From an uncultured Clostridia bacterium (GTDB lineage: Bacteria; Bacillota; Clostridia; Christensenellales; Borkfalkiaceae): a stretch of DNA of 64,000 nt. Made by a program: the position numbers and the translations under genes. The stretch lies in assembly GCA_947627565.1 (NCBI GenBank), contig CANQWO010000001.1:87172-151171 (forward strand), given 5' to 3'. Positions 3,853 through 50,426 of the stretch are shown here, piece by piece; within the stretch, counting starts at the first letter, position 1; every line of letters begins with the position of its first letter. Below the pieces are notes generated by a model, which was given only the letters and a program-made list of their open reading frames with translations, was not told the origin of the DNA and searched no databases.

Positions 3853-5304
3853 TTATCGGGCGCTCCAATACTTCTTGAAATTGAGAGTCGGGCTCGCCTT
3901 ATCGATGAGCCAAAGGATGGGATCGGCCACCCCTTCCGGCGTGAACGCCGAACCGTCTACGACGTGCCCGAGCGCGCTGCAAGTGAAATATTGCACGTTG
4001 TCGAAGCGCGACTTCACCGTGTTGATGAAATCTGCCTGGTCGTTTTCCAGCAGGAACTGTTCGCACAGCTTGTTTTGGACCTCGAACCGGGTAGTTTTGA
4101 CGTCCGCCGCAAGTTGATTCTTGACGGCCGTCTCGCCGATCTTTTCGTCGATGAGCGGGAGGTCCCCCTTCACGAATACGACGGCGAGCTTCTGCGTGAT
4201 GCGCTGTTTGGACGACAAGTTGCGCATGTTTTCGAGAAGTTTGATGAGCATGCCCATGATCTCGGAGATCGGCATCTCGCTCGGGTGGAACTCCGCGATC
4301 GCCGCCTCGTCCATGCCCGCTTCCGCCATCAGTTGGTCGCGGAACGTCGGAATGGAGAGCGGGTCGATCACCATCAAAAAGCCGTTCGCAAAGTTATAGC
4401 CGACCTGTTCGTCCATGCCCGTGCCGACGCCGTAGACTTCGCCGCCGACGTCGCACAGCGAGATCTCGTTGCGGACCTTGCTCTTCTTGGGCGAAAAGAA
4501 AAATTCATAGTACATCAGCCGCATTTCCGAAGTCTTCTGCGGAAGACGGCCCTGTTCCATCTCGCGGAGGTTGTCGTTGAGATAGTCCGTGCCCTGTTCG
4601 ATGTGCTCATAGTTGAAATCGAGCTGGTTCTGCGCGAGCTGCTCGAGTTCACGGATGGCCATATTGACATAGCACGTCTTGCCCGAGCTGGGCCCGCCCA
4701 ACACCGGGATACTGATATTGACGAGGAAGCCGTTGCCCTTCAACTCATAGCCGCACTTGGGGCAAATGGCCGTGAGCTTCTGGCGGCCGTTGAAGAACGT
4801 CGTCGGAAGTTTTCTCCCGCAGTTGCACTGACGCTTCAGAATGCCGTATTTCGAAGGTTTCAGCTTGGTGTGCACAACGCCGCAGCCGGGGCACTGGTAG
4901 TAAGGCAGTGCGAATTTATACTGGCACTGCGGACACGAGGAGCCGATCTTGCGCAATCTGCAGAGCGCCGTATCCGACAGCCACAGGAGACTGAATCCCA
5001 AATAGATCAGCGCCATGATGAGCGCGACGATGAGAATGTGCGCGGCCGAAAGGACGGCGAGCAGGGAAGTCGTGATAAAGAGCGTCGAGAGAAGACAGGC
5101 CACATAGTAGGCCGTCTTGATGAGCGTCAGGAGCAGTCTGCCGAATCCGAAATCGTCGATGAGATCCCCCCACGTATCCGTGAGGCCCTCGAACTCGTCG
5201 CTGAGCGTTTCACCCAAGCGGGAAAATCCGTTTTTGATGGTCCGCCACAGGTCGTCGTAACATCTGCCGAAAAAGTAATTGATCTTAGCCGGTTGTTTCT
5301 CCAT
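3853..5304 (-). CDS. Membrane-anchored double-zinc-ribbon TRAFAC-type GTPase (DO-GTPase2-like), copy A
   Basis: N-terminal TM segments; CPQCQYKF..CPGCG and CNCG..CPKCG ribbons; P-loop GGPSSGKT; DVGG (G3-like); VVFVKGDL (G4-like). Confidence 0.72.
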   Translation of the reverse strand: MEKQPAKINYFFGRCYDDLWRTIKNGFSRLGETLSDEFEGLTDTWGDLIDDFGFGRLLLTLIKTAYYVACLLSTLFITTSLLAVLSAAHILIVALIMALIYLGFSLLWLSDTALCRLRKIGSSCPQCQYKFALPYYQCPGCGVVHTKLKPSKYGILKRQCNCGRKLPTTFFNGRQKLTAICPKCGYELKGNGFLVNISIPVLGGPSSGKTCYVNMAIRELEQLAQNQLDFNYEHIEQGTDYLNDNLREMEQGRLPQKTSEMRLMYYEFFFSPKKSKVRNEISLCDVGGEVYGVGTGMDEQVGYNFANGFLMVIDPLSIPTFRDQLMAEAGMDEAAIAEFHPSEMPISEIMGMLIKLLENMRNLSSKQRITQKLAVVFVKGDLPLIDEKIGETAVKNQLAADVKTTRFEVQNKLCEQFLLENDQADFINTVKSRFDNVQYFTCSALGHVVDGSAFTPEGVADPILWLIDKASPTLNFKKYWSAR

Positions 5305-5306
5305 CG

Positions 5307-5576
5307 TTACGCCCCCAATTCATCCTTCAAAGCGCCGAAGTAGTTGATGAAACTACGGACGATCCCGACGGCAGACCCGTATACCATACAGCCAGCGAGG
5401 ATCGCGACGAAGATCGTGACTGCGATCGCCACGATCGTGAGCGCGATCATCAATAAGGCCAACGCGACCCCGAGCGCCAAAAGCGCAAGTGCAATATAGA
5501 GAAGCAGTACTAAAATGCCTGCAATGGGAGAGAGCTCCCAAGCTCCCTCCCACAGGTCAGAAATAAAATCCCACAT
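5307..5576 (-). CDS. Small membrane protein paired with GTPase copy A
   Basis: 89 aa, highly hydrophobic; 2 nt from the downstream GTPase and 4 nt from the upstream one. Confidence 0.7.
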   Translation of the reverse strand: MWDFISDLWEGAWELSPIAGILVLLLYIALALLALGVALALLMIALTIVAIAVTIFVAILAGCMVYGSAVGIVRSFINYFGALKDELGA

Positions 5577-5580
5577 GGTG

Positions 5581-7014
5581 TTATTTGCTCCAATACTTCT
5601 TGAAATTGATCGTCGGGCTCGCCTTATCGATGAGCCAAAGGATGGGATCGGCCACCCCTTCCGGCGTGAACGCCGAGCCGTCTACGACGTGCCCGAGCGC
5701 ACTGCATGTGAAATACTGCACGTTGTCGAAGCGCGACTTCACCGTGTTGATGAAATCCGCCTGGTCGTTTTCCAGCAGGAACTGTTCGCACAGCTTGTTT
5801 TGCGCGCTGAAACGGTTGGCCTGCGTATCCGCCGCAAGCAGATCTTTGACGGCCGTCTCACCGATCTTTTCGTCGATGAGCGGGAGGTCGCCCTTCACAA
5901 ATACGATGGCAAGTTTTTGCGTGATGCGCTGTTTGGACGACATGTTGCGCATGTTTTCGAGAAGTTTGATGAGCATGCCCATGATCTCGGAGATCGGCAT
6001 CTCGCTCGGATGGAACTCCGCGATCGCCGCTTCATCCATGCCCGCTTCCGTCATGAGCTGGTCGCGGAACGTCGGAATGGAGAGCGGGTCGATCACCATC
6101 AGGAAGCCGTTTGCATAGTTATAGCCGACCTGTTCGTCCATGCCCGTGCCGACGCCGTAGACCTCGCCGCCGACGTCGCAGAGCGAGATCTGGTTGCGGA
6201 CCTTGCTCTTCTTGGGCGAGAAGTAAAATTCATAGTACATCAGCCGCATTTCCGAAGTCTTCTGCGGAAGACGGCCCTGCGCCATCTCACGAAGGTTGTC
6301 GTTGAGATAGTCCGTACCCTGTTCGATGTGCTCGTAGTCGTAGTCCAACTCGTTTTTCGCGAGCTGTTCGATCTCACGGATGGCCATGTTGACATAGCAC
6401 GTCTTGCCCGAGCTGGGCCCGCCCAACACCGGGATACTGATGTTGACGAGAAAGCCGCCGCCGCTGAGGACGTTGTTGCACTTGGGGCAGATGGCCGTGA
6501 GTTTCTGGCGGCCGTTGAAGAACGTCGTGGGAAGTTTTCTCCCGCAGTTGCACTGACGCTTCAGAATGCCGTATTTCGAAGGGTTGAGTTTGGTGTGGAT
6601 CGCGCCGCAACCGGGGCACTGGTAGTAAGGCAGTGCGAATTTATACTGGCACTGCGGGCAGGAGGAGACGATCTTGCGGAATCTGCAAAGGATCGTATCC
6701 AACAGCCACAGGAAGCTGAATCCCAAATAGATCAGCCCCATGATGAGCAGCGTGACGACAACGTGGATCGCGGAAAAGAAAATGCAAATGACCGTCGAAA
6801 TGATCGACGAAAGAATGAGCAGCGCAAGCCAATAGCCGAATTTGATCGCGCCGATGGGATTCAAAAACTTTTTCTCGCGGATGATCTTCCCGAGATGACG
6901 CCCGCAATTGGCGAGCGATCTTCCGAGATTGCGGAACGTGTTTTTGATCGTGTTCCCCAGATCCCGGTAGCATTTCCCAAAAAAGTAATTGATTTTTGCC
7001 GGTTGTTTTTCCAT
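5581..7014 (-). CDS. Membrane-anchored double-zinc-ribbon TRAFAC-type GTPase (DO-GTPase2-like), copy B
   Basis: Close paralog of 3853..5304 over the zinc-ribbon and GTPase regions; GGPSSGKT, DVGG, IVFVKGDL; divergent N-terminal TM part. Confidence 0.72.
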   Translation of the reverse strand: MEKQPAKINYFFGKCYRDLGNTIKNTFRNLGRSLANCGRHLGKIIREKKFLNPIGAIKFGYWLALLILSSIISTVICIFFSAIHVVVTLLIMGLIYLGFSFLWLLDTILCRFRKIVSSCPQCQYKFALPYYQCPGCGAIHTKLNPSKYGILKRQCNCGRKLPTTFFNGRQKLTAICPKCNNVLSGGGFLVNISIPVLGGPSSGKTCYVNMAIREIEQLAKNELDYDYEHIEQGTDYLNDNLREMAQGRLPQKTSEMRLMYYEFYFSPKKSKVRNQISLCDVGGEVYGVGTGMDEQVGYNYANGFLMVIDPLSIPTFRDQLMTEAGMDEAAIAEFHPSEMPISEIMGMLIKLLENMRNMSSKQRITQKLAIVFVKGDLPLIDEKIGETAVKDLLAADTQANRFSAQNKLCEQFLLENDQADFINTVKSRFDNVQYFTCSALGHVVDGSAFTPEGVADPILWLIDKASPTINFKKYWSK

Positions 7015-7082
7015 AGTACTTCCTCTTTTCTAAATTCTCTCGATGGGCCGCTTCAAAAACCTCGAACGGCCCTACCTGCATG

Positions 7083-7274
7083 TCATTTCCCGACCGTACT
7101 CCCGAATGCCTTAAAGTAGTTTTTCAACCCCGTGAAGACACTGATCCCGGCGCCGACAAACGCCCCGCCGGCCAGAGAGATGAACATCAGAAACAGATAC
7201 GTTGCGCTCGAAAACAGCAAGATCGCAAGCGCAAAGAGTCCGATGCCGCCGCCTTTCTTTTTACTCATAATCAT
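7083..7274 (-). CDS. Small two-TM protein paired with GTPase copy B
   Basis: 63 aa MIMSKKKGGGIGLFALAILLFSSATYLFLMFISLAGGAFVGAGISVFTGLKNYFKAFGSTVGK; collinear with the cluster. Confidence 0.6.
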   Translation of the reverse strand: MIMSKKKGGGIGLFALAILLFSSATYLFLMFISLAGGAFVGAGISVFTGLKNYFKAFGSTVGK

Positions 7275-7329
7275 TTCTCCTTTCTATAATATATAAAATT
7301 TTTCTCTTTTCCGCTCATGGAAGCGCAGG

Positions 7330-10173
7330 TCAGCGCTTATTATGCTTGCCCGGGACCTGTTTGGGATCGGGGGCTTGCGGATTCCCCTGCGGCTGTACCG
7401 GGCCCGTCTTTTGGGGATCGGGCGCCGCGGCAGCATCCTTCTGCTTCGGCTCCTTGTTTTTGCGGCCGAACAGCCGCTCGAACAATCCCGCCTTCTGCGT
7501 CGCGTTAAATTCCGTGACAAAATCGGCGACGGGCTTCGAGGGATCCTGTCCCTGCACGTCCTCCAGCAACTGCTTCTTTTTGCCGCCGCGGAAACTGTCG
7601 AGGCAGGCAAACGTGAATTGCTTGATGTCGTCCTTCAGGGGATCCGGAGGCATTATGCCGCCGCGCGGGTCTCTCTTCGCAGGCGCATTCTTGTACGCGG
7701 CGTATATGATCAGGGACTTCATGAGATTTTCGACGTCCACTTTGGTCTTGTCCATCGCCTCAATGAAGGCCTTCTGGAATCCCTTGATCCTGAGAAGCTG
7801 GTAGATCGCGAGATTGAACGCGTCCTCGGGCTTCAGCGACATGCAGAGCAGCCCGTCCGCCAACAGAAGCACGCGGTCGGTATAGTTGTTGACAAAGCTC
7901 TCATATTGCGACATCGTCTGAAGACACGGGTAGGTGGATTGGCCCTTCCCCGCGAGCTGCGCGACCTCTTCGTACTTCGCGTTGTTCGCCTCGGCTTCCG
8001 CATTGTTCCCGAACGGCTTTTTCTTCACCTGGTAGCGCTCCGTCGGCATCGACATGCCCTGCTGGGCGACAAAGTAGGCGTCAATGGGAATATTCCATTG
8101 CTGCGCGGAGTGGAAGAGATTTTGATATTCTCTCGTAAGGGAGGCGTCTTTGAGACTGCTCTCGATCTCTTTCGGACCGGCTTTCGCGACCGTATAGCCA
8201 TAGAACTTCTCCACGATCCACCGGTCCACCTTGTTGTCGATGAGCCAGATCTCCGTGAACAGCGACACGGCATCGCGGGTCTTATTGCCCACAACGCCCG
8301 CAAAGTAGCGGTCAAGCTGCCTTGCAAAGTTGTTCTCGGGGTCTCTGTGTTGGAGATAATACTCTCTGTAGTATTTGAGAAGGCCGTCCCGCGTGACGGT
8401 GCTGTTTGCGAAAATATACCGCTCCATCTCCGAGAAGAACTCCGCAAGTGCGGGATCTCCGCGGAGCAGCTTGTCCGCAGCGGAAAATTCCGCGGCCTCG
8501 CCGCAGAAGTTATAGTACACTTTCACCATCTCCTCGTTGCGGCCGGCAAGCAGATAATTCTTCATATAATACGCCGCCGTGGAAGCATTCCCGCAGAGCA
8601 TGCGGACGAGAGACAGGAACCAGTTGCGGTCGAGGTTCGCATAGCCCTTGGACGTCAGCGCGTCCATGCAGCACTTCGCGAGGTCGAATTGATTTGCATT
8701 GTGCGCCCGCGCGCATGCGAAGAGCTTATCGACCTTCTCGCGGTCTCTCTGCCCCGCGTAAGCGGCGATGACGTTCTTGAGGAACGCGTCCGCACCGGAA
8801 AGCTCCGGACGGAAATCATAGACGCCCGCAAAGAGCAGGTAAACTTTATTGAAAGAATTGCCGTTTGCCTCAAGATATGCCTTCCCGGAATCCTGCGCGA
8901 AGTGCGCGGTCACGAAATCCTTGAAGGGATAGGGAATGACGCGCTTGAATCCGTCGACATAGGCCTCCGGAGCCGCCGCCGTCTGCGCATACGTGTTGAA
9001 ATAGTAGTCGACGACGGCGCGCTTGTTCTGCGCGTTCATGAGACGGTAGAGCGACGTGCAGAAATTCTTGAGCCCGTCGCCCTGCGGATAGTCGTTCCGG
9101 ACGATGCGGAGCGCCATCGCGTCGGCAAATCCGTTTGCGTCGAATCCGTGATATTTGAGGGCGTCCTCATAGGCCGTTACCAATTCGTCGAGAGTGAAGG
9201 CGTAGTCCCCTTTCAGCAGACGGCAGACCGCCGTTGCGCGGTCGGGGGTCAGGCCGGTCTCCTTGACGACCAACGAAATGCGGTCGGCAAATTCCAAAGC
9301 CTGGCGGGCATCCACCGCAAGCAGATCGACGACAGCGGAGACATAGGCGCCCGGCGTAACCGTCGTGAGCGTGTTGCTCTTGAAATCGAAGACGAGCGCG
9401 CCGGACAACTGTTTCTGGCGGTAGTCGATGACGGCGAGGCCGTCTCCCGCGACCGAAGAGATCAGCGGGCGCACATCGGGCGTGATGCGCACGTTGACGT
9501 TCTTATCCTCGGGCGATGCGAGAATGAACGTCAGCTTTTTCACGAGGCTGCCGGGAAGCGCAAGCGTGGCCGCCCGGTACCAAAGCGGAAGATTGGCGGG
9601 CTCGTCGTTCAGATAGATGGGCTTGCCCGCGTCCATGTTGTCGATCACGGCCTGTACGAGCAATTTGAGCGACTCCTTTCTCCCGGGCGCGCTCAAAAAC
9701 GTGCGGATCTCCGCCTCGGAGATCGCCTGCGACGTCGGGATCTCGACCTGCGGGAGCGGAGGCGGATTGGTCGCGCGCCATTCCTCGAGCGTCAGATCGC
9801 GGCGGAAGAGATCGGACCGGATAAACGTGGCGGGTTTGAATGCGGAGTCTTCCCCGAAGATGAATGCGTGGATGAGATAGTTCCCCATTCTCCCCTGGTT
9901 TTCAAATCCCTTATACTCGTGTCCGATATAGACGGACTGGGCAATGCAATATCTTCCGGTCGGCAGACGGAAATAAGCGAATACGCGCGGAAACAGCGTC
10001 TCGATCTCCTGTTCCGTCGGCTCATACGGTAAGCCATTCGGAGCACGGTACTTCATCATGAGAGAGATCACGGCCTCTTCTTCGCTCGTGACGTCAGCCG
10101 ATTTGGAATACAGGCTGAAACCGAAATTCGGTGCATTTTTCCATGATGTATAAATGTACTGACTTGCTTTCAT
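7330..10173 (-). CDS. GTPase-associated protein 1-like (GAP1-N-type N-terminus), 947 aa
   Basis: N-terminus QYIYTSWKNAPNFGFSLYSKS and IAQSVYIGHEYKGFENQGRMGNYLIHAFIFGED resemble the Y-x-G-x-D/E-Y-x-G-R-x-GN-(F/Y)-x-x-H-A signature of GAP1-N domains; adjacent GTPase genes. Confidence 0.62.
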   Translation of the reverse strand: MKASQYIYTSWKNAPNFGFSLYSKSADVTSEEEAVISLMMKYRAPNGLPYEPTEQEIETLFPRVFAYFRLPTGRYCIAQSVYIGHEYKGFENQGRMGNYLIHAFIFGEDSAFKPATFIRSDLFRRDLTLEEWRATNPPPLPQVEIPTSQAISEAEIRTFLSAPGRKESLKLLVQAVIDNMDAGKPIYLNDEPANLPLWYRAATLALPGSLVKKLTFILASPEDKNVNVRITPDVRPLISSVAGDGLAVIDYRQKQLSGALVFDFKSNTLTTVTPGAYVSAVVDLLAVDARQALEFADRISLVVKETGLTPDRATAVCRLLKGDYAFTLDELVTAYEDALKYHGFDANGFADAMALRIVRNDYPQGDGLKNFCTSLYRLMNAQNKRAVVDYYFNTYAQTAAAPEAYVDGFKRVIPYPFKDFVTAHFAQDSGKAYLEANGNSFNKVYLLFAGVYDFRPELSGADAFLKNVIAAYAGQRDREKVDKLFACARAHNANQFDLAKCCMDALTSKGYANLDRNWFLSLVRMLCGNASTAAYYMKNYLLAGRNEEMVKVYYNFCGEAAEFSAADKLLRGDPALAEFFSEMERYIFANSTVTRDGLLKYYREYYLQHRDPENNFARQLDRYFAGVVGNKTRDAVSLFTEIWLIDNKVDRWIVEKFYGYTVAKAGPKEIESSLKDASLTREYQNLFHSAQQWNIPIDAYFVAQQGMSMPTERYQVKKKPFGNNAEAEANNAKYEEVAQLAGKGQSTYPCLQTMSQYESFVNNYTDRVLLLADGLLCMSLKPEDAFNLAIYQLLRIKGFQKAFIEAMDKTKVDVENLMKSLIIYAAYKNAPAKRDPRGGIMPPDPLKDDIKQFTFACLDSFRGGKKKQLLEDVQGQDPSKPVADFVTEFNATQKAGLFERLFGRKNKEPKQKDAAAAPDPQKTGPVQPQGNPQAPDPKQVPGKHNKR

Positions 10174-10182
10174 AGCAACCTC

Positions 10183-11292
10183 CTATTTTACTGTTGGAAT
10201 ATATTTGTTGACGGAAAGCAACCAAAGCAACGGGTCGAGAACACGCCTCGGGCTGATGCGCGACGACAGGTTGTTCCCCGAAGGGACGTTGCCCAGCGAC
10301 GACACGCCGAAGAACGAACATTTCTCGAAGTTGTGGATGAGGACCAGAAGCTCCTCGTCGAGCCAGTTGACAATGAGCGTCTCCATCTCTTTCTGGCAGT
10401 TTTCATAGTCCGATTGGACAAAGACGCCGCGCTTCAAATGCTCGGATTCCTCCCGAAGGCAGCTTCCCTCCGGCAGGATATCGAACTTCTCGAGCGCGTC
10501 GATCTTGGTAAACACGACGGCAAGCGGGATCTTGATCGTCCCCTTGATGTTCTTCACCTGTCGGATGTTATCGACCACGCGGTTCAGAACGACGTTGATG
10601 TCCGTATTCTTGTTGGGCAGGTCCATCTTGCCCTGCAATTGGTCGCGGATCGAGGAGACCTGCAGCGGGTCGAGGAGCAGAATGATGCCCTTCGAGTTGG
10701 GAATATAGCGGTTGAAGACCACCATGTTGTCCTGGCTGTCGAGATTTTCGCCCGCGGTATCATAGAACGTCAGCGCCGCGGACTTTGCGATGCGGTTCTT
10801 CTTGTCGAGGAAGCGCAACGGGAAGATGAGCGGCGGGATCTCGCCGGCGTCCGTCGAATTGACGACGACGTTATGGTTGAAGAGCGGATCGTAGTAATAC
10901 GCGTCGTAATACTTCTTGGATTCCTCGCTGCTCGTGATGGAGAGCATGCAATTATATTTGATCGACATCTTCTTGCGGATCTCGTTGACGAGGACGCCGA
11001 TATAATTGGACTTCCCCGAAGCCTTGGCGCCGAGAAGCGCGATGGGCAAACTGGAATCCTCGAGGAAATCGCGCGGGATGAGCTTATCGACCGTGGGGCA
11101 ATAGAGCAATTTGCTGGCCTCTTTGCAGCCCATGCATGCGCTCTTGCGGTTGGTCGGGATCCAGCCCGCCGCGTCTTTGACGACTCCTTTCCGGCATACC
11201 GCGCTGGTCCCGTTGATCGAATATGTGCATTTTACGCCGCAATCCGTTAAAGAATGTTCCGCATAACAATACGGACAAGTGAATTTTGCCAT
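10183..11292 (-). CDS. TRAFAC-type GTPase with N-terminal zinc-binding Cys cluster (DO-GTPase1-like)
   Basis: CPYC N-terminus, further Cys pairs; P-loop GAKASGKS; FYDTAGE; VVFTKIDAL. Confidence 0.72.
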   Translation of the reverse strand: MAKFTCPYCYAEHSLTDCGVKCTYSINGTSAVCRKGVVKDAAGWIPTNRKSACMGCKEASKLLYCPTVDKLIPRDFLEDSSLPIALLGAKASGKSNYIGVLVNEIRKKMSIKYNCMLSITSSEESKKYYDAYYYDPLFNHNVVVNSTDAGEIPPLIFPLRFLDKKNRIAKSAALTFYDTAGENLDSQDNMVVFNRYIPNSKGIILLLDPLQVSSIRDQLQGKMDLPNKNTDINVVLNRVVDNIRQVKNIKGTIKIPLAVVFTKIDALEKFDILPEGSCLREESEHLKRGVFVQSDYENCQKEMETLIVNWLDEELLVLIHNFEKCSFFGVSSLGNVPSGNNLSSRISPRRVLDPLLWLLSVNKYIPTVK

Positions 11293-11323
11293 GGTGTAAT
11301 GACCTCTTAAACGATACTTTTGC

Positions 11324-14300
11324 TTACAAATGGATCACTTCTTTGAGCTGGACATACCCCGTGTTTTCATCCGCGGGGAAGAGTGCGAAACTCATGTCGC
11401 GCGCCATCGGCGGGACCGTGAGCGTGAGCTTTGCCGAATAATCTTTGCTGAATAATCCCTTCTTGAGCGGCATCTTCACGATCTTTTCCACGAGTTCGCC
11501 GCGGCTCTTGTTGAGCGGCTTGGGAGAACCGCGCATCAAAAGCATATCGGGCACTTCGGCCTCGGAATCGGCCGCAAATTTGATGGAGACCTTGAACGGC
11601 TTCATGGGATTGGCGGTATATTCCATACAGAATTTCACCGTCATCCGGTCGCGCTGGCAGATCACCTCTTCGAGGCGCTCGCCGTTCGTGACGGACGTCC
11701 TTCCGCCCAGCGCAACTTCGGTAAATACCGTCACATAGTAACTGATATTGCGCTTTAAGCTGAGCTTGATCCCGCCCGTGCTCTTAAATTCCGAAGCGGA
11801 GATCTTGATGGTATCGGCGGGGTCGGTGAGTTCGCTGACATATCCCCGCTCGCTGATCTTTGCAATGACGTTGACGCAGCTCGGGTGCAAATTCCCGCTC
11901 ACGATCCCGCCCGTATTGTCGCTCTTATAGCTCAGATCGCGGACGCCGCAGATGCTGTTGACTTCCACGGGCGGCGCGACGATGTAGAGCTGGTCGTTGG
12001 AGACGAGCGGATAGACGTAGCCGACGACGTCTTGCGGCAACACAAAGGACATCTGGTCGCCGAGGAAGCTGACCGTCAACTCCTTGGCGCCCTTCATCAT
12101 CTCGCTGTATCCGGCGATCTGAAGCAACGTGTCGGTGCGGCAAGCCAACTTCTGCGGAGAGAAGAGGAGATGCAACGTCCCCGTATCCGCCTTCGCGGCA
12201 AAGGAATATTCGCAGCCGGAGAGCCGTTTGACGGTAACGCCCGTGATGGGCTTGAGCATCTCGAAGGTCTTGAAACAGCGGGACACGCCCTTGGAGTAGA
12301 ACGTCTGGCCCGCGATCTCGTATTTGCAGAGGATGAGATAGCTGTATTCCCCCATCACCGCGTCGGCGAATCCATCCTTGGCGACGTTCTTCACCGCTTC
12401 GCCGTCGCCTGCGCGCTGCGGCGCCACGGGGCCCTTCTGCCGCCAGACCTGGATCTCTTTGACGTTGTCGGGAGCATCCCACTTGACCGCGATCTTGCCC
12501 TCGATCATCTCCTGCCGCAAATTCGTGATGTCGCTGAATATCTGGACCGGCGTCCGGCAGACGGCGACGGGAGAATTGACGCCCGCGCGCGTCGCATAGA
12601 CGCCGTAGTAATACCGCGTCGCGGAGGAGACCGATTTATCCTCGAAGAAGTCGATGGAGAGGAAGCTCGCGACCACGCTGCCGTCCTCCGCATTGGCGGG
12701 CATCGAGCCGACTTTGCGGATCACGGAATAGGTCGTTCCGCTGCGCGAGGGCGAGAGCTGCCACATCAGACGGACGGAACTGCCGCCCAATTCGAAACGG
12801 ACGTTGAGGGGCGGCTTGGGCGGATACTGCGCGATGAACAGCCGGGCTTCGTTGAAGTCCGCGCACAGTTCCAAGGCGCGCATCGCGGCCGCCGCGGCCT
12901 GGTCGTCGTTGTTTGCGGCGATCGCGGCCCGCGCGTTTTGCAGTTCCGTGCGCGCGCGGGAGATGACCGCCTCGATGTCCGCCGCGATCTTGGCCGTGTC
13001 GGCGGGACGGTATGACGGGAAAGAACGCTTGACGTTTTCGATCGCGTTCTTGGCCTGGATATAATTCTTTTCGGCAATAAACTTCTTCACGCCCTCGATC
13101 GCGGCGCGGTATTTGTTGCCGATCGTCTCTTCGATGTTTTTGCGCTTGGAGAGCTCGGCTTCGTATTCCGCGACCTTCTTGAAGATCGTAGAATTGGGGA
13201 AGCGCTTGTAATCGCGGACGATATTCTTGATGGACGAGAGATTCATCTCGACGGCCGAAAGATCGCAATCGGGCGCAAGCAACATGCGATCGAGCTGCGC
13301 CGTCGTCTTCGTGAACTGTTCCTTGCCCTGATAGGAGGCGCCGCAGGCGGCGCAGAGCTTGGATTTCATCGTAAACGACATCTTGCCGCCGCAGTTCCAG
13401 CACAGGATCTCGAACGGTTTTCCGCAGTGCGGGCAGACTTTCGCGCCCGCCTCATAGATCTTTCCGCAGTCGGGATACGGGCAGATCTCGAGGTCCTTTA
13501 CGCCCGTCCCCTCTTTATCGCCGCCGGCGACCGTCAACGCATACGCTTTCAGGCCCGCGCCGAGCATGACCTCGACGGAATCGATGCTGCGGCCCAACGT
13601 GTCCATGATGATCTGCGCGAAATTATAGAACTCGTTCAAAGAGATGGATTTTGCGCCGTATTGCTTGCGGAGCGCAAACTGCTTCCAGATCTTATCGCGC
13701 AGTTTGATATAGTCATTGTAGTGGCCGCGCGCCTCTTTGACAAGCAAAATCGTCTCTACGTCGCCGCAGAGAGTCTTTCCGAGCGTTCGGGCGCTTCGGT
13801 CCCCTTTCGCCATGTATTCGTTGTACGCCTTTTGCTTCGCCGCATTGATGTCCGCCTCCGACGCATTCGGCGAAACGCCGAGAAATTCGTAGAGCGTGGA
13901 CATGCGCAACGAAGATTGCAGCGAATCGGAAATGCGGTCGAAATCTTTGAACGGGATCTTGACACCCGCGATGTCGTCAATATATTTGACGGAGCCGTTT
14001 CCGATAAACGCCAAGACCTCTTTTTCCAACTCGGGGAACGTATAATACTGCGCCTCTTTGTTGGCGTTGTTTCTCAGCGTCTGCAATTCGCTCTTGAAGA
14101 TCATGCCGTTGTTGAGGGCAATGTTCTTCACAAGGTCCATCATCTCATTGAGCTTGAACCGGACGGCGGCGTCGGCCTCCTGCTTGCGCAGATTGCCGTC
14201 GTGCATGACCGTCTCCATGTCTGCGGTGAGCGCCTTGAGACGCTCGCCGTAGGCATTGTCGTCGGTGATGGCCTTGATGTCTGCGATCGCCTTGTCGATG

Positions 14301-14395
14301 ACCTTGACATTGGTCTCTTTCGCGCTCAGTTTGAGCGCGATGAAGTAATTGAAATTGGGGGAACTGCGTTCCTGTTGCGTTCTTGTTTCAGCCAT
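11324..14395 (-). CDS. Large multidomain protein: J-domain-like segment lacking HPD, multiple zinc ribbons, FN3-like domains
   Basis: STLYEFLGVSPNASEADINAAKQKAYNEYMAKGDRSA (J-like); CPYPDCG..CPHCG..CWNCG..CAACG; beta-rich PPLNVRFELGGSSVRLMWQ... repeats. Confidence 0.65.
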   Translation of the reverse strand: MAETRTQQERSSPNFNYFIALKLSAKETNVKVIDKAIADIKAITDDNAYGERLKALTADMETVMHDGNLRKQEADAAVRFKLNEMMDLVKNIALNNGMIFKSELQTLRNNANKEAQYYTFPELEKEVLAFIGNGSVKYIDDIAGVKIPFKDFDRISDSLQSSLRMSTLYEFLGVSPNASEADINAAKQKAYNEYMAKGDRSARTLGKTLCGDVETILLVKEARGHYNDYIKLRDKIWKQFALRKQYGAKSISLNEFYNFAQIIMDTLGRSIDSVEVMLGAGLKAYALTVAGGDKEGTGVKDLEICPYPDCGKIYEAGAKVCPHCGKPFEILCWNCGGKMSFTMKSKLCAACGASYQGKEQFTKTTAQLDRMLLAPDCDLSAVEMNLSSIKNIVRDYKRFPNSTIFKKVAEYEAELSKRKNIEETIGNKYRAAIEGVKKFIAEKNYIQAKNAIENVKRSFPSYRPADTAKIAADIEAVISRARTELQNARAAIAANNDDQAAAAAMRALELCADFNEARLFIAQYPPKPPLNVRFELGGSSVRLMWQLSPSRSGTTYSVIRKVGSMPANAEDGSVVASFLSIDFFEDKSVSSATRYYYGVYATRAGVNSPVAVCRTPVQIFSDITNLRQEMIEGKIAVKWDAPDNVKEIQVWRQKGPVAPQRAGDGEAVKNVAKDGFADAVMGEYSYLILCKYEIAGQTFYSKGVSRCFKTFEMLKPITGVTVKRLSGCEYSFAAKADTGTLHLLFSPQKLACRTDTLLQIAGYSEMMKGAKELTVSFLGDQMSFVLPQDVVGYVYPLVSNDQLYIVAPPVEVNSICGVRDLSYKSDNTGGIVSGNLHPSCVNVIAKISERGYVSELTDPADTIKISASEFKSTGGIKLSLKRNISYYVTVFTEVALGGRTSVTNGERLEEVICQRDRMTVKFCMEYTANPMKPFKVSIKFAADSEAEVPDMLLMRGSPKPLNKSRGELVEKIVKMPLKKGLFSKDYSAKLTLTVPPMARDMSFALFPADENTGYVQLKEVIHL

Positions 14396-14420
14396 ATAAA
14401 AATCCCGTTATGCGTTGCTA

Positions 14421-16505
14421 TCAGCCGAGCGAAGTGAAACTGCCCGAGGACTCCGTCGCGATGCCGTCCGCGATCTCGCGGAACGTCGCGACCAATTTGC
14501 TGAGATCGATCTTCTTTGCTTCGCCGGGAGACGCGATCTTGCGCAAAAAGTCGTAGTCCGCATCGCCGACGCCGATCGCATAGATCTTTACGCCGTCGGC
14601 CTTCAGCCTGTCGGCGCTCCGGATGGCGTCGTCCTGATGGAACCATTCGCCGTCGGTCAAAACGACGAGGATGCGGTTGGCATCCGTCTTGCGCTTTTCT
14701 CTGCGGTAGAAGTCGAGCGGATCCGCCGATGTGCCGCCGTCTGCATCCAGACGCCGGACCGCCGCGGAAACTTCGCTCTTCTTCGCCTCTTTGCACAGCC
14801 AACTGCTGGAATTTGCAAAGCTGATGACGGACGTTTTCGCGTCTTCGCCGAGCTGGGCGACAAACTCCAGAATGGATTTTTTGGCTTCATCGATGGGCGC
14901 GCCGTACATACTGCCCGAGGTATCGATCGCGAACGCGACGTCGACCTGCGCCTTCTTTGCCGCTTCCTCCTTTTCGCGGAGGAGCCGGGCGATGATGTCT
15001 GCGATGCTCTCCGTTACGGCGGATTTCTCCACCTTGAGCGCAGTGCCGTCGGAGAGGCTGCCCGTGACTTCGACCACGCCGTTTTGGTCGTAGAGGAAGT
15101 TGATCGTGAAGTTGTTTTTCTCTCCGCGCTTCATGCCGGATACGACATATTTATAGAGCAACGTGCAGTCGTAGGGCGAAGTGGATTCCCCTTGCAGGAC
15201 GAAGACTTGCAATTTGTCGCCGCCGAAGTTATAGCTCTTGCCGTAAGGGACGCCCACGTTGCTGTTCTTCTTGATGATGATACTGTTGATGATATTCTTG
15301 CCGTCTGCGGTAAACGCGAGCATGCCGAGCCCGTGCGAGGTGACGTCGCGGATGCTGCCGCTGTCGATCGTGAGGGAGATCGGACCGCTTGCGCCGCTGC
15401 TCTTCGCCGCGCCGCCGCCCATCGAGAGCGTGATGCTGCCCGCCACGCACAGATGCGCCTGCATGGCGGCGCCGGACGCGACGATGGTATCTACCTTGCT
15501 CCCGATCGTTCTCGGTTCCTTCCCGAATTTCTTGCGGATGGTATCGAGGACCTGCGGCATACGCGTGGAGCCGCCGACGAGCACGATCTCGTCGATGGAA
15601 TGCCAACCGAATCCGTTTCCGAGTTCTTCGAAACATTTTTCGGTGAGCATGATCGTCTCCGCCATCAAACGGCGCGTCTTCTCTTCAAACTCTTCGCGCG
15701 TGATGGTGTATTGCCCGCTGAATCCCTCGCTGCGCACGGTGACCGTCGTCGCGGGGACATTCGAGAGTTGCTTCTTCGCCTTTTCGCAACGGACCACGAG
15801 CTCGGTGTAATCCTCCTTGTTCGCGGCGATGTCGACGCCGAACTCGTCCTGAAACCGGTCGACGATCTCGTCGACGATGGTCTTATCCCAGTTGCGGCCG
15901 CCCAATTGGTGGTCGCCGTTGGTGGCGATGACGTCCACTTGCGCGCCGTCGATCTTGGCGATGGTGACGTCGAACGTGCCGCCGCCGAGGTCATAGACCA
16001 TGGCCGTCTTTTTGCCGCCGCCCGTAAGGCCATAGGCGATGATGGCGGCCGTCGGCTCGTTGATGATCTTGAGGACGTTGAAGCCCGCCTTTGTGCCCGC
16101 GCGGATGGTGGCCTGCCGCTGCGCTTCGTTGAAATACGCGGGAACGGTGATGACCGCGCCCGAAATATTCACGCCGTTGGCCTTTTCGACGGAAGTTTTG
16201 AGGTTTTTCAGGAAGACGCCCGAGAGCATCTCCGCATCGTAGCTCTTTCCGTCGAGCGTGCGGGCAAAATAGGGATCCCCCATCATGCTCTTATAGAACG
16301 CCGCGGCGTTGAGGTTCCCCGCCGCCTGCTGGTCCTTCGCTTCCTGCCCGATCAGAGTCTCGCCGTCCTCGATGCATACGACGGAGGGCGTGATCTCCTC
16401 ACCGATGTCATTTTTGAGGATCTCCACTTTGCCAGAAGCCGCATCGAACGTCGCGACGGCGGAGTAAGTCGTCCCCAAATCAATCCCAACATTGATCGTT
16501 TTCAT
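14421..16505 (-). CDS. Hsp70 NBD fused to C-terminal vWA domain
   Basis: MKTINVGIDLGTTYSAVATFD, YDLGGGTFDVT, VLVGGSTRMPQV; C-terminal VDVAFAIDTSGSMYGAPIDEAK (MIDAS DxSxS) and VVLTDGEW. Confidence 0.88.
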   Translation of the reverse strand: MKTINVGIDLGTTYSAVATFDAASGKVEILKNDIGEEITPSVVCIEDGETLIGQEAKDQQAAGNLNAAAFYKSMMGDPYFARTLDGKSYDAEMLSGVFLKNLKTSVEKANGVNISGAVITVPAYFNEAQRQATIRAGTKAGFNVLKIINEPTAAIIAYGLTGGGKKTAMVYDLGGGTFDVTIAKIDGAQVDVIATNGDHQLGGRNWDKTIVDEIVDRFQDEFGVDIAANKEDYTELVVRCEKAKKQLSNVPATTVTVRSEGFSGQYTITREEFEEKTRRLMAETIMLTEKCFEELGNGFGWHSIDEIVLVGGSTRMPQVLDTIRKKFGKEPRTIGSKVDTIVASGAAMQAHLCVAGSITLSMGGGAAKSSGASGPISLTIDSGSIRDVTSHGLGMLAFTADGKNIINSIIIKKNSNVGVPYGKSYNFGGDKLQVFVLQGESTSPYDCTLLYKYVVSGMKRGEKNNFTINFLYDQNGVVEVTGSLSDGTALKVEKSAVTESIADIIARLLREKEEAAKKAQVDVAFAIDTSGSMYGAPIDEAKKSILEFVAQLGEDAKTSVISFANSSSWLCKEAKKSEVSAAVRRLDADGGTSADPLDFYRREKRKTDANRILVVLTDGEWFHQDDAIRSADRLKADGVKIYAIGVGDADYDFLRKIASPGEAKKIDLSKLVATFREIADGIATESSGSFTSLG

Positions 16506-16543
16506 ATCTTTTTCCTATGCCGGCGATGCCGTTTCTGACGCGC

Positions 16544-18217
16544 TTATGCAAGCGTGAAGCCGGAGACTTCGTCGAGGCCCTTGCTCGCCGCGTCGCCGCC
16601 CTTGCGGACAGGATGGACTTCATGACGGACGCCCGTATCGAGCTCCACAAGCGTAAGAATGAGCTGGCCGTTGATGTCGACGTCGAGCGTGACTTCCACG
16701 CGCGCATCGCCGCGGACGGGCGGCGTGAACGGGACGGGCATCTCTTCATAGAGCGGCGCGCACTTGTCTTCGGCGACGTCGTCGGTCAGTTCTTCGTTTT
16801 CCAAAATGAAGATGTTGACGGAATCGAACATGCCGCCGTCTGCGCCGCCGACGGTGAGGTTGGGAATGACGGACGCCGTCGTGCCGTGCGCGGGCTTCGG
16901 CGTATCCTTCTTGACGAGGTTGAGGAATTTGGGCTGGCCGTTGCTGTAATAGCGGAGGCAATACGACTTGGTGCAGAGCTCGATGATCTCGTTCTGCGTG
17001 CCGCCCGTGCCCTCGAAGCTCGTGGAAAGGCTCATGCTCTCGCCGCCGAATCCGCCGGGAACGGTTCCCGCATCGGCCGTCGCGGGCGTGCCGTCTTCGT
17101 TGAAGTTGCTGTCGACGCTCATGCCGCTCGCAACGAGCGCGGCGCCGTTGGAGACCGCCTTATCGGGGTCGAAGGAGACGAGCGGCTTGTTGTAATACGC
17201 CGTAAGGCCTTCCTCGACCTGCTTCATTCTCGTGGAACCGCCGACGAGGATGATCTCGTCGATCTCGGCCATCGTCATGCCCTTCTTTTCGAGCATCTGG
17301 TCGATGAGGGCGGTCGTCTGCGCAAACAGACCGCGGGTGAGTTCGTTGAACTTCTCGCGCGTGATCTCGATCCTCGCCTTGCTGCTCTCGAAGTTGGGCG
17401 TCATGGTGGCGCTCTCCTTCTGGGTGAGCATCTTCTTGGTCGCCTCGGCCTTTTCGCTGAACCAAACGGTCTGCTCGGGGTCGTTCTTCATGGCCTCTTC
17501 GTCGCAGCCCGTCTCATTGCAAAATTCCGAACGGACATAGTCGGAAATGGCCTTATCCCAGTCCTTGCCGCCGAGCTTGTGATCGCCGCCCGTCGTGACG
17601 ACCTGGTACTTTCTGTCCTGTCCGTTGAAATCGAGACGCATGACGGTGCAGTCGAACGTGCCGCCGCCGAGGTCGTAGATGAGCACGGTCTTGTGCATAT
17701 CTTCGGGATGGGAGTTGCCGTATGCGATCGCCGCGGCAGTCGGCTCGTCCATGATCTTGAGGACTTTGAGCTTCTGGCCGTTGGAAAGTTCGACCGCTTC
17801 GCCGGCCTTTCTCGTCGCCTCGCGCGCCGCGTCGCCGAAGTATGCGGGGCAGGTGATGACCGCGCCTTCGATCTCGTCGCCCTGGAGCCACTTTTCGGTG
17901 TCCGCAATGAGCTTCTTGAGAATGACGGACGAAATGGCGCTTGCGGACATTTGCTGGCCGTTGATCTCCTTCATGAAGTTGGGATCGCCCATGTAGTTCT
18001 TGACGCGCTCAATGACTCTGTCGGGATCCATCGCGCCCGCTTCACGGGCCGCGGAACCGACGACGACCGTCGAGCCGTCCGCATCGAAATAGACGATGGA
18101 CGGAGTCGTCTTCTCGCCTTCGCTGCTCTCCACATTGGTGATGACGCCGGTGTCGTCTACATAGCTGACGACGGAATACGTTGTACCGAGATCGATGCCG
18201 ATTTTTCTGGATGCCAT
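16544..18217 (-). CDS. Hsp70/DnaK-like chaperone without obvious C-terminal lid
   Basis: RKIGIDLGTTYSVVSYVDD, YDLGGGTFDCTV, ILVGGSTRMKQV; 557 aa ending shortly after the beta-type region. Confidence 0.85.
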   Translation of the reverse strand: MASRKIGIDLGTTYSVVSYVDDTGVITNVESSEGEKTTPSIVYFDADGSTVVVGSAAREAGAMDPDRVIERVKNYMGDPNFMKEINGQQMSASAISSVILKKLIADTEKWLQGDEIEGAVITCPAYFGDAAREATRKAGEAVELSNGQKLKVLKIMDEPTAAAIAYGNSHPEDMHKTVLIYDLGGGTFDCTVMRLDFNGQDRKYQVVTTGGDHKLGGKDWDKAISDYVRSEFCNETGCDEEAMKNDPEQTVWFSEKAEATKKMLTQKESATMTPNFESSKARIEITREKFNELTRGLFAQTTALIDQMLEKKGMTMAEIDEIILVGGSTRMKQVEEGLTAYYNKPLVSFDPDKAVSNGAALVASGMSVDSNFNEDGTPATADAGTVPGGFGGESMSLSTSFEGTGGTQNEIIELCTKSYCLRYYSNGQPKFLNLVKKDTPKPAHGTTASVIPNLTVGGADGGMFDSVNIFILENEELTDDVAEDKCAPLYEEMPVPFTPPVRGDARVEVTLDVDINGQLILTLVELDTGVRHEVHPVRKGGDAASKGLDEVSGFTLA

Positions 18218-18265
18218 AAAATTTTTCTCCTCATATGATTTTTATTATGATTTTTATTTGATGTC

Positions 18266-18284
18266 CGGCGGCCGTTCGCCGCCG
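18266..18284 (-). other. Intercistronic stem-loop between GrpE-like and dnaK-like genes
   Basis: CGGCGGC/GCCGCCG 7-bp arms, 5-nt loop, no adjacent U tract on the minus strand. Confidence 0.4.
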
Positions 18285-18325
18285 CGCGTTCCCTTGTTTC
18301 CGCCCGCCCGGGGCCGTTTCTCTTC

Positions 18326-19579
18326 TCAACCGTTGTACTTATAGACGTCTACTTTGGACCAGTAGAGCACTTTCCCATTATAAGTATAGCAATCGGTGTA
18401 GCGGCGGGCGATCTTCCTGTCTTTCGCAGGGTCGTCCGTGGGATAGACCTTCAGGATCTTATCGCGCGAGGAATCGAGCGTATCCGAGATCTCCGTGAGA
18501 ATGGCCACGCCGCTGACGAAGAGGATCTTGTCGATCCCTTCCAAAGCGTTGGTCAGGATCTCGGCGTATTTCTCCGCCTTGTTCTCTTCGGTGACCGTCT
18601 CCGCCATATCGGCGAGGAGCCCGTCCGTTTCGTAATACAGCGCGACGAGCTGGCGGTAGAGCGGGAGAAGGATCGCGTCGGAATAGTTGTCGTCGAGCGA
18701 GGCGACGGCGCTCTCCAAAGCGGCGCGCTCGGCGTCCGCCGCGCAGTTCTCTTCGAGAAGCGCCTCCAACCCGGCGTTCTTGTATTCAATGAAGCGGAGC
18801 AATTCGTTGAACGAAGGCTTCCCCGCAAAATACGAGACTTCGGGCTGCGGCTCCTTCGCCGCGACCTCCGGCTTGGCAAATTCGATCTTCCGCGGCTTGG
18901 CGTGAAGAAGCGACTTGCCGCGATACTTAAATTCGTCGCCGTCCAGTTCGACGCTCTGGTTCAGGAGCGTCTCCTCGAGATCGGCCTTGATGTACCCCGC
19001 GTATTTCAGGGCGTCCTTCGTGCTCTTGGAATAATTCTCCACGTCGCGCAAAGTCTTGCGGTAATCTTCGCGGAGATCGATCAAAGAGGCGCAGAGCGGC
19101 TTGACGAGTTTGAGCGCGAAATCTTCGCGGTACGTCTGCACTTCGCGGGTGAGCTTTGCGATCGTCTCATCCTTGCCCTTCGTGAGGCGGATCAATCTCG
19201 CAAGCCCGTCATAATACTGCGCAAGCAAATTGCGGAATTGCTCGAAATTTACCGTCTCCACGGGAATCTCGATTTCGGTCGCCTCCGGGCCGGCCTCAAT
19301 CGCCTCCTCGGCGGCTTCGGCTACGGCCACCGCCGCTTCTTCCCGAAGTTCCTGCGCGACCGGCGATCCCGCCGGGGTTTCCGACGCTTCCGCCGGGGCC
19401 TCCGCCGTGTCTTCGGCCTCGGGCACGGGGGCCTCCGCATCTGCCGAAACGGGCGCGGGCGCTTCCATCTCTGCCGGAGCCACCTCGACTACGCCGAGCT
19501 CCGCGGCCGTGCATGCGGGCGCGGCGACAGGTTCGGACGCCGGGCCCTGCGGCATGTTTGTCTTTTCGTCTTCCGCCAT
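18326..19579 (-). CDS. GrpE-like coiled-coil protein with Ala/Glu/Pro-rich N-terminus
   Basis: Helical region ETIAKLTREVQTYREDFALKLVKPLCASLIDLREDYRKTLRDVENYSK; first gene of a cluster followed by two Hsp70s and a J-like protein. Confidence 0.45.
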   Translation of the reverse strand: MAEDEKTNMPQGPASEPVAAPACTAAELGVVEVAPAEMEAPAPVSADAEAPVPEAEDTAEAPAEASETPAGSPVAQELREEAAVAVAEAAEEAIEAGPEATEIEIPVETVNFEQFRNLLAQYYDGLARLIRLTKGKDETIAKLTREVQTYREDFALKLVKPLCASLIDLREDYRKTLRDVENYSKSTKDALKYAGYIKADLEETLLNQSVELDGDEFKYRGKSLLHAKPRKIEFAKPEVAAKEPQPEVSYFAGKPSFNELLRFIEYKNAGLEALLEENCAADAERAALESAVASLDDNYSDAILLPLYRQLVALYYETDGLLADMAETVTEENKAEKYAEILTNALEGIDKILFVSGVAILTEISDTLDSSRDKILKVYPTDDPAKDRKIARRYTDCYTYNGKVLYWSKVDVYKYNG

Positions 19580-19686: not shown

Positions 19687-19746
19687 GTACTATTATAATA
19701 GTACCATACACCCCCCCCCTCGATGTCAACTGCTATTCGGTAAAAA
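19687..19746 (-). promoter_or_regulatory. Promoter-like element P1 with G9 tract upstream of the cluster
   Basis: Minus strand: TTTTTACCGAATAGCAG-TTGACA-TCGA-GGGGGGGGG-TGTATGG-TACTAT-TATAAT; 20 nt from TTGACA to TACTAT, 26 nt to TATAAT. Confidence 0.55.
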
Positions 19747-19907
19747 TAAATATAATTATATTTTATAATATGTATAAGAAATACTTATATTTTGGTATTT
19801 TTTGGCACATGTTTGGCGATTTTTCCCATTTTTTCGACGCGGACCGCGCGACACCGCTCCACGGCGATCCGACAACGGTGTGGCAAAATCTTCATAGTGT
19901 GCCGTTT

Positions 19908-19957
19908 CTATCATATCACATACCCCCCCCCTGTATGTCAAGCGTTATTCGTAAAAA
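19908..19957 (-). promoter_or_regulatory. Promoter-like element P2 with G9 tract, homologous to P1
   Basis: Minus strand: TTTTTACGAATAACGC-TTGACA-TACA-GGGGGGGGG-TATGTGA-TATGAT; 20 nt spacer. Confidence 0.55.
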
Positions 19958-20033: not shown

Positions 20034-20063
20034 AAAAAACCGACCTGCGAGAGGTCGGTTTTT
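20034..20063. terminator. Intrinsic terminator downstream of tsaD (possibly bidirectional)
   Basis: ACCGACCT..AGGTCGGT stem flanked by A and T tracts. Confidence 0.8.
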
Positions 20064-48975: not shown

Positions 48976-49004
48976 ATTGTATCATCCGGCCGCCCGGTTG
49001 TCAA
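48976..49004 (-). promoter_or_regulatory. Putative sigmaA-type promoter of carbonic anhydrase gene
   Basis: TTGACA N17 TACAAT on the minus strand. Confidence 0.7.
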
Positions 49005-50396: not shown

Positions 50397-50426
50397 ATTA
50401 TAGCGCGGAGGTCCCGCATTTGTCAA
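50397..50426 (-). promoter_or_regulatory. Consensus sigmaA-type promoter of GH27 gene
   Basis: TTGACA N18 TATAAT on the minus strand; GCGG-N5-CCGC in the spacer. Confidence 0.8.

What the first reader, a model, noticed from the sequence alone, without database searches (positions are those of the whole stretch)
19687..19957. Two homologous promoter-like elements with G9 homopolymers between the -35 box and the -10 region
Seen in sequence: both copies share TTTTTAC(C)GAATA-N4-TTGACAT-N3-G9 on the coding strand of the cluster, about 212 bp apart. Downstream hexamers TACTAT (P1) and TATGAT (P2) lie 20 nt from TTGACA, and P1 also has a perfect TATAAT at 26 nt. Other promoters here use 16-18 nt spacers (50397-50426, 48976-49004). 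Established: homopolymer tracts in promoter spacers cause slipped-strand phase variation in several bacteria. Alternative: G-tract operators of CsoR/RcnR/FrmR-type regulators look similar (P2 reads ATACAGGGGGGGGGTATGT).
Basis: partly seen in the sequence, partly recalled or inferred. Interest (0 to 1): 0.82.

Follow-up and report, generated by a model that had tools for sequence, protein, structure and literature searches.

The report
Poly-G slippage switches in bacterial promoters
Two promoters in this uncultured Clostridia genome carry a run of nine Gs between their two RNA-polymerase contact boxes, and the same arrangement recurs across most species of the genus, often in front of surface lipoprotein genes, so it looks like a widespread slipping-DNA dial for gene expression.

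Summary
G9 runs at 19711-19719 and 19923-19931 (- strand) sit between TTGACA and a -10-like hexamer, spacer 20 in both. TTGACA-N-G7+-N-TATAAT occurs in 72 of 101 genomes of the genus and 8 of 398 others in the phylum; the reversed control gave none in the genus. Three other families of the order also carry it. Ordinary TTGACA/TATAAT promoters here have a 17-bp spacer (111 of 142); the poly-G ones spread over 13-21 bp and avoid 17 (17 of 183). The tract lies anywhere in the spacer, which argues against an operator. In two sister species one promoter has 317 of 320 flanking bases identical and differs in length only by G8/G9. Downstream genes are often lipoproteins (28 of 60, against 2 of 17 controls). 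The focal pair precedes an Hsp70/GrpE-like/DO-GTPase/GAP1-N2 operon, a predicted conflict system; two of four orthologous loci keep a poly-G promoter. Best reading: porA-type spacer-length promoters varied by strand slippage. Switching itself was not observed, and one paralogous family is nearly uniform (mostly G8), so the rate may be low. I found no earlier report in the papers searched.

The parts
19692..19729 (-). Promoter P1: TTGACA (19724-19729), G9 tract in spacer, TACTAT (19698-19703) at spacer 20 with TG one base upstream, TATAAT (19692-19697) at spacer 26
19711..19719 (-). P1 G9 tract
19910..19941 (-). Promoter P2: TTGACA (19936-19941), G9 tract in spacer, TATGAT (19910-19915) at spacer 20 with TG one base upstream
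19923..19931 (-). P2 G9 tract
20035..20063 (-). Terminator-like hairpin after tsaD; separates P2 and P1 from the upstream gene
18326..19579 (-). First gene downstream, 417 aa, weak GrpE C-terminal match (below Pfam cut-off)
16544..18217 (-). Hsp70-like protein, 557 aa
14421..16505 (-). Hsp70-like protein with vWA domain, 694 aa
11324..14395 (-). 1023-aa protein with double zinc ribbon (below cut-off); J-domain-like and FN3-like segments judged by eye
10183..11292 (-). DO-GTPase2 family protein
7330..10173 (-). GAP1-N2 protein (GAP1-M below cut-off)
5581..7014 (-). DO-GTPase2 family protein with zinc-ribbon-like region and hydrophobic segments (by eye)
3853..5304 (-). DO-GTPase2 family protein, paralogue of the previous gene

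Best explanation
P1 and P2 are sigma-70-type promoters whose spacer contains a poly-G tract. Gain or loss of Gs by replication slippage changes the -35/-10 distance and so changes transcription of the downstream operon. The same design is used across this genus and in some other families of its order, often for surface lipoproteins and here for a predicted GAP1-N2/DO-GTPase/Hsp70 conflict system. Most tracts currently hold the spacer away from 17 bp, so the assembled state is probably low or off, with slippage able to bring it towards 17. Shown: the promoter architecture, its recurrence and clade restriction, the spacer distribution, one clean orthologous G8/G9 difference, and target enrichment. 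Inferred: hypermutability, reversibility, and the effect on transcription.
For: TTGACA-N{0,12}-G7-N{0,13}-TATAAT in 72/101 genus genomes, reversed control 0 there; 8/398 other phylum genomes (Fisher p 2e-53). The poly-C version has 14 sites in 11/101 genomes. Order-wide 49/297, concentrated in families f1, f19, f170 and f174. Spacers: tract-free 111/142 at 17; with tract 17/183 at 17, p 4e-39; other families show the same pattern, 6 at 17 against 20 at 16 and 12 at 18. Tract position is free, 0-11 nt from either box. G001/G079 orthologous promoter: flanks 317/320 identical, G8 against G9, spacer 16 against 17, no other indel. A second orthologous promoter has spacers 14, 15 and 16 in three species. 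Same-genome pairs with shared spacer flanks but G8/G9 or G9/G10: G031, G008. Lipobox in 28/60 downstream genes against 2/17 behind tract-free promoters (p 0.011). Focal orthologues in G071 and G068 keep poly-G promoters at spacers 17 and 16. Precedent: PorA transcription follows the number of Gs between -10 and -35 (PMC3899988).
Against: No reads, strain series or expression data. In G002, paralogous promoters with diverged flanks are almost all G8 (one G7), and four G030 paralogues are all G9, so slippage may be slow or length selected. MutS1 is present in 41/41 genomes, so the genus is not obviously repair-deficient. Both focal promoters sit at spacer 20 and their -10 hexamers are not perfect consensus. 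Orthologues in G033 and G067 showed no G7 run in the fetched loci. Short-read assemblies can misstate homopolymer length (caution in PMC4577077).
Confidence: 0.74

Rival explanations
1. Slow evolutionary tuning: tract length sets promoter strength and is selected between species, but switching within a population is too rare to act as phase variation.
For: Near-uniform tract lengths among paralogues in G002 and G030; MutS1 present; all clear length differences seen are between species or between paralogues.
Against: Does not explain why poly-G is used rather than any spacer sequence, or the lipoprotein bias; one sister-species promoter changed length only in the tract among 320 flanking bases.
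Confidence: 0.15
2. The G tract is a fixed structural or regulatory element, either a protein-binding site or A-like DNA that shifts the best -35/-10 distance, with no role for length change.
For: Clade restriction; strong G-over-C strand preference; T follows the tract in 95/115 sites; P2 has an inverted repeat around the tract.
Against: Tract position within the spacer is free and spacers are spread on both sides of 17; no shared flanking repeat; no link to CsoR-family presence.
Confidence: 0.08
3. Neutral poly-G expansion in unconstrained spacer DNA, or an assembly artefact.
For: Homopolymers are mutable; several tracts lie at contig ends (G009, G089, G106).
Against: Reversed control 0 and poly-C rare in the same genomes; clade restriction; lipoprotein bias; most tracts are internal to contigs with intact promoter flanks.
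Confidence: 0.03

Closest known systems
Neisseria meningitidis porA promoter (poly-G between -35 and -10)
   Same: Poly-G in the spacer of a promoter; a one-G change alters the -35/-10 distance (PMC3899988).
   Different: There a single well-studied gene in a pathogen; here a recurrent design in uncultured Clostridia, with tracts anywhere in the spacer and current lengths mostly off 17. Function untested here.
Poly-C opc promoter (Neisseria) and poly-A vlp lipoprotein promoters (Mycoplasma hyorhinis), from memory
   Same: Homopolymer-length control of promoters, surface proteins as targets.
   Different: Different base and lineage; not compared by sequence here.
Invertible-promoter phase variation in Clostridioides difficile and gut Bacteroidales (PMC11868660)
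   Same: Phase variation in gut anaerobes.
   Different: Works by site-specific inversion, not slippage in a homopolymer.
GAP1-N2 GTPase-centric conflict systems, Hsp70/GrpE theme (PMC7159879)
   Same: Focal operon has DO-GTPases, GAP1-N2, two Hsp70-like proteins, a GrpE-like protein and a DnaJ/FNIII-like protein.
   Different: A length-variable promoter is not mentioned in the passages read; 'phase variation' occurs 0 times in that paper's main text.

Membership tests
SSR (slipped-strand) phase-variable promoter | Homopolymer tract within the -35/-10 spacer | tested here: met
SSR (slipped-strand) phase-variable promoter | Tract length differs between close relatives with otherwise matching flanks | tested here: met
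   G001/G079, 317/320 flanking bases identical, G8 against G9; one clean case, not at the focal locus
SSR (slipped-strand) phase-variable promoter | High, reversible switching within a population | not testable with these tools
   No reads or strain series; G002 paralogues are near-uniform
SSR (slipped-strand) phase-variable promoter | Expression depends on tract length | not testable with these tools
   No expression data
CsoR/RcnR/FrmR G-tract operator | Inverted repeat flanking the G tract | tested here: not met
   4 of 115 sites against 3.5 expected; P2 alone of the focal pair has one
CsoR/RcnR/FrmR G-tract operator | Regulator gene present where the sites are | tested here: not met
   G008, G121 and G123 have no PF02583 match but 6-7 sites each; G121 is 95% complete. 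The window's own genome does have one (G000:C7).
GAP1-N2 GTPase-centric conflict system, Hsp70/GrpE theme | DO-GTPase, GAP1-N2 and Hsp70 genes in one operon | tested here: met
   against PMC7159879
GAP1-N2 GTPase-centric conflict system, Hsp70/GrpE theme | GrpE and DnaJ-FNIII components | tested here: inconclusive
   GrpE match below Pfam cut-off; J-domain-like and FN3-like segments read by eye only

The most novel reading that the evidence does not exclude
A set of poly-G phase-variable promoters, shared across several families of an uncultured Clostridia order, holds surface lipoproteins and a predicted immune operon in a default weak state away from the 17-bp spacer, with slippage producing rare high expressers.
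Probability: 0.45. Interest if true: 0.78.

Novelty: new variant of a known kind. Interest (0 to 1): 0.62.

Why it matters
If confirmed, it would show homopolymer-slippage control of promoters as a genus-wide strategy in uncultured Clostridia, extend it to a predicted anti-invader operon, and give a simple sequence signature for finding phase-variable surface proteins in metagenomes.

Tried and rejected
CsoR-type operator. Loss of MutS as the cause of tract instability: MutS1 present in 41/41. Phage origin: 8 stretches matched in the viral contig collection; their hosts were not looked at. PADLOC gave one weak match among the eight focal operon proteins, an Hsp70. Literature searches for homopolymer promoter phase variation in Firmicutes, Clostridia or Christensenellales returned no matching report in the titles and abstract openings listed. 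The genus was not named: one relative is titled uncultured Clostridia bacterium, Lapin-012 bin96.

Full report
Observation. The two G9 runs and their boxes are as described. On the minus strand P1 is TTGACA-TCGA-G9-TGTATGG-TACTAT and P2 is TTGACA-TACA-G9-TATGTGA-TATGAT, both with spacer 20; P1 also has TATAAT at 26 inside a perfect 18-bp palindrome. P1 and P2 align over the whole promoter, consistent with a local duplication. A terminator-like hairpin follows tsaD upstream, so P2 and P1 are placed to drive the operon that begins with the 417-aa gene at 18326-19579.

Recurrence. TTGACATNNNG8 occurs only at these two sites in the genome. The wider pattern TTGACA-N{0,12}-G7-N{0,13}-TATAAT is in 72 of 101 genomes of the genus with no reversed-control hit, and in 8 of 398 other phylum genomes. 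In the order it is in 49 of 297 genomes, concentrated in families f1, f19, f170 and f174. The poly-C version has 14 sites in 11 of 101 genomes.

Spacer length. In G083 and G030 ordinary TTGACA/TATAAT pairs are at spacer 17 in 111 of 142 listed cases. Poly-G promoters in the genus are spread from 13 to 21 with two outliers, and only 17 of 183 are at 17. The dip at 17 relative to 16 and 18 holds in the other families (6 against 20 and 12), and pooled gives p 0.0009. The tract sits 0-11 nt from either box. A binding site would be expected to keep a fixed geometry; these promoters do not. The dip at 17 is my reading of a preferred weak state (inference); it could also reflect selection against very strong consensus promoters.

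Length change. The cleanest case is one promoter in sister species G001 and G079: 317 of 320 flanking bases identical, no other indel, G8 against G9, spacer 16 against 17. Another orthologous promoter has spacers 14, 15 and 16 in three species, though there a base beside the tract also differs. Against fast switching, paralogous promoters in G002 are nearly all G8 and four in G030 are all G9.

Targets. By a simple lipobox rule 28 of 60 genes behind tract promoters (G002 left out) are lipoproteins, against 2 of 17 behind tract-free promoters (p 0.011). A further set gave 21 of 36, partly overlapping and including a few genomes outside the genus. The control set is small.

Focal operon. Pfam finds Hsp70 twice (once with vWA), DO-GTPase2 three times and GAP1-N2, with sub-threshold GAP1-M and GrpE matches. 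This matches the Hsp70/GrpE theme of GAP1-N2 systems described in PMC7159879. Of four other genus genomes with the 417-aa gene, G071 and G068 keep a poly-G promoter (spacers 17 and 16) and G033 and G067 showed none in the fetched loci. L093 gives the same promoter as G071 and appears to be the same genome.

Alternatives. CsoR-type operators lack support. MutS1 is present in 41 of 41 genomes. Tracts near contig ends could reflect heterogeneity, repeats or sequencing trouble and are not used as evidence.

Literature. PMC3899988 describes the porA precedent. The searches did not turn up a report of this in Clostridia; only titles and abstract openings of their listed papers were read.

Noticed in passing
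window 3853-19579 (-): Operon matches the Hsp70/GrpE theme of GAP1-N2/DO-GTPase conflict systems; PADLOC-DB gave no match to its GTPase or GAP1 proteins.
   Followed up: partly
window 19687-19704: Perfect 18-bp palindrome GTACTATTATAATAGTAC overlaps the P1 -10 region.
   Followed up: no
G002, L100-L114: Family of paralogous lipoproteins (MNTKKWL...), copies seen with their own TTGACA-N4-G7/8-TGN-TATAAT promoter.
   Followed up: partly
115 tract promoters: The base after the G run is T in 95 of 115 sites.
   Followed up: no
L048, L058, L060, L061, L076: Several tract promoters precede zinc-ribbon proteins (MKYCQ-CG..., MYCNHC...).
   Followed up: no
G009 C5, C15, C19, C24, C26: Tract promoters lie within 40 bases of contig ends (G20 at the end of C5), as if assembly broke in the tract.
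   Followed up: no
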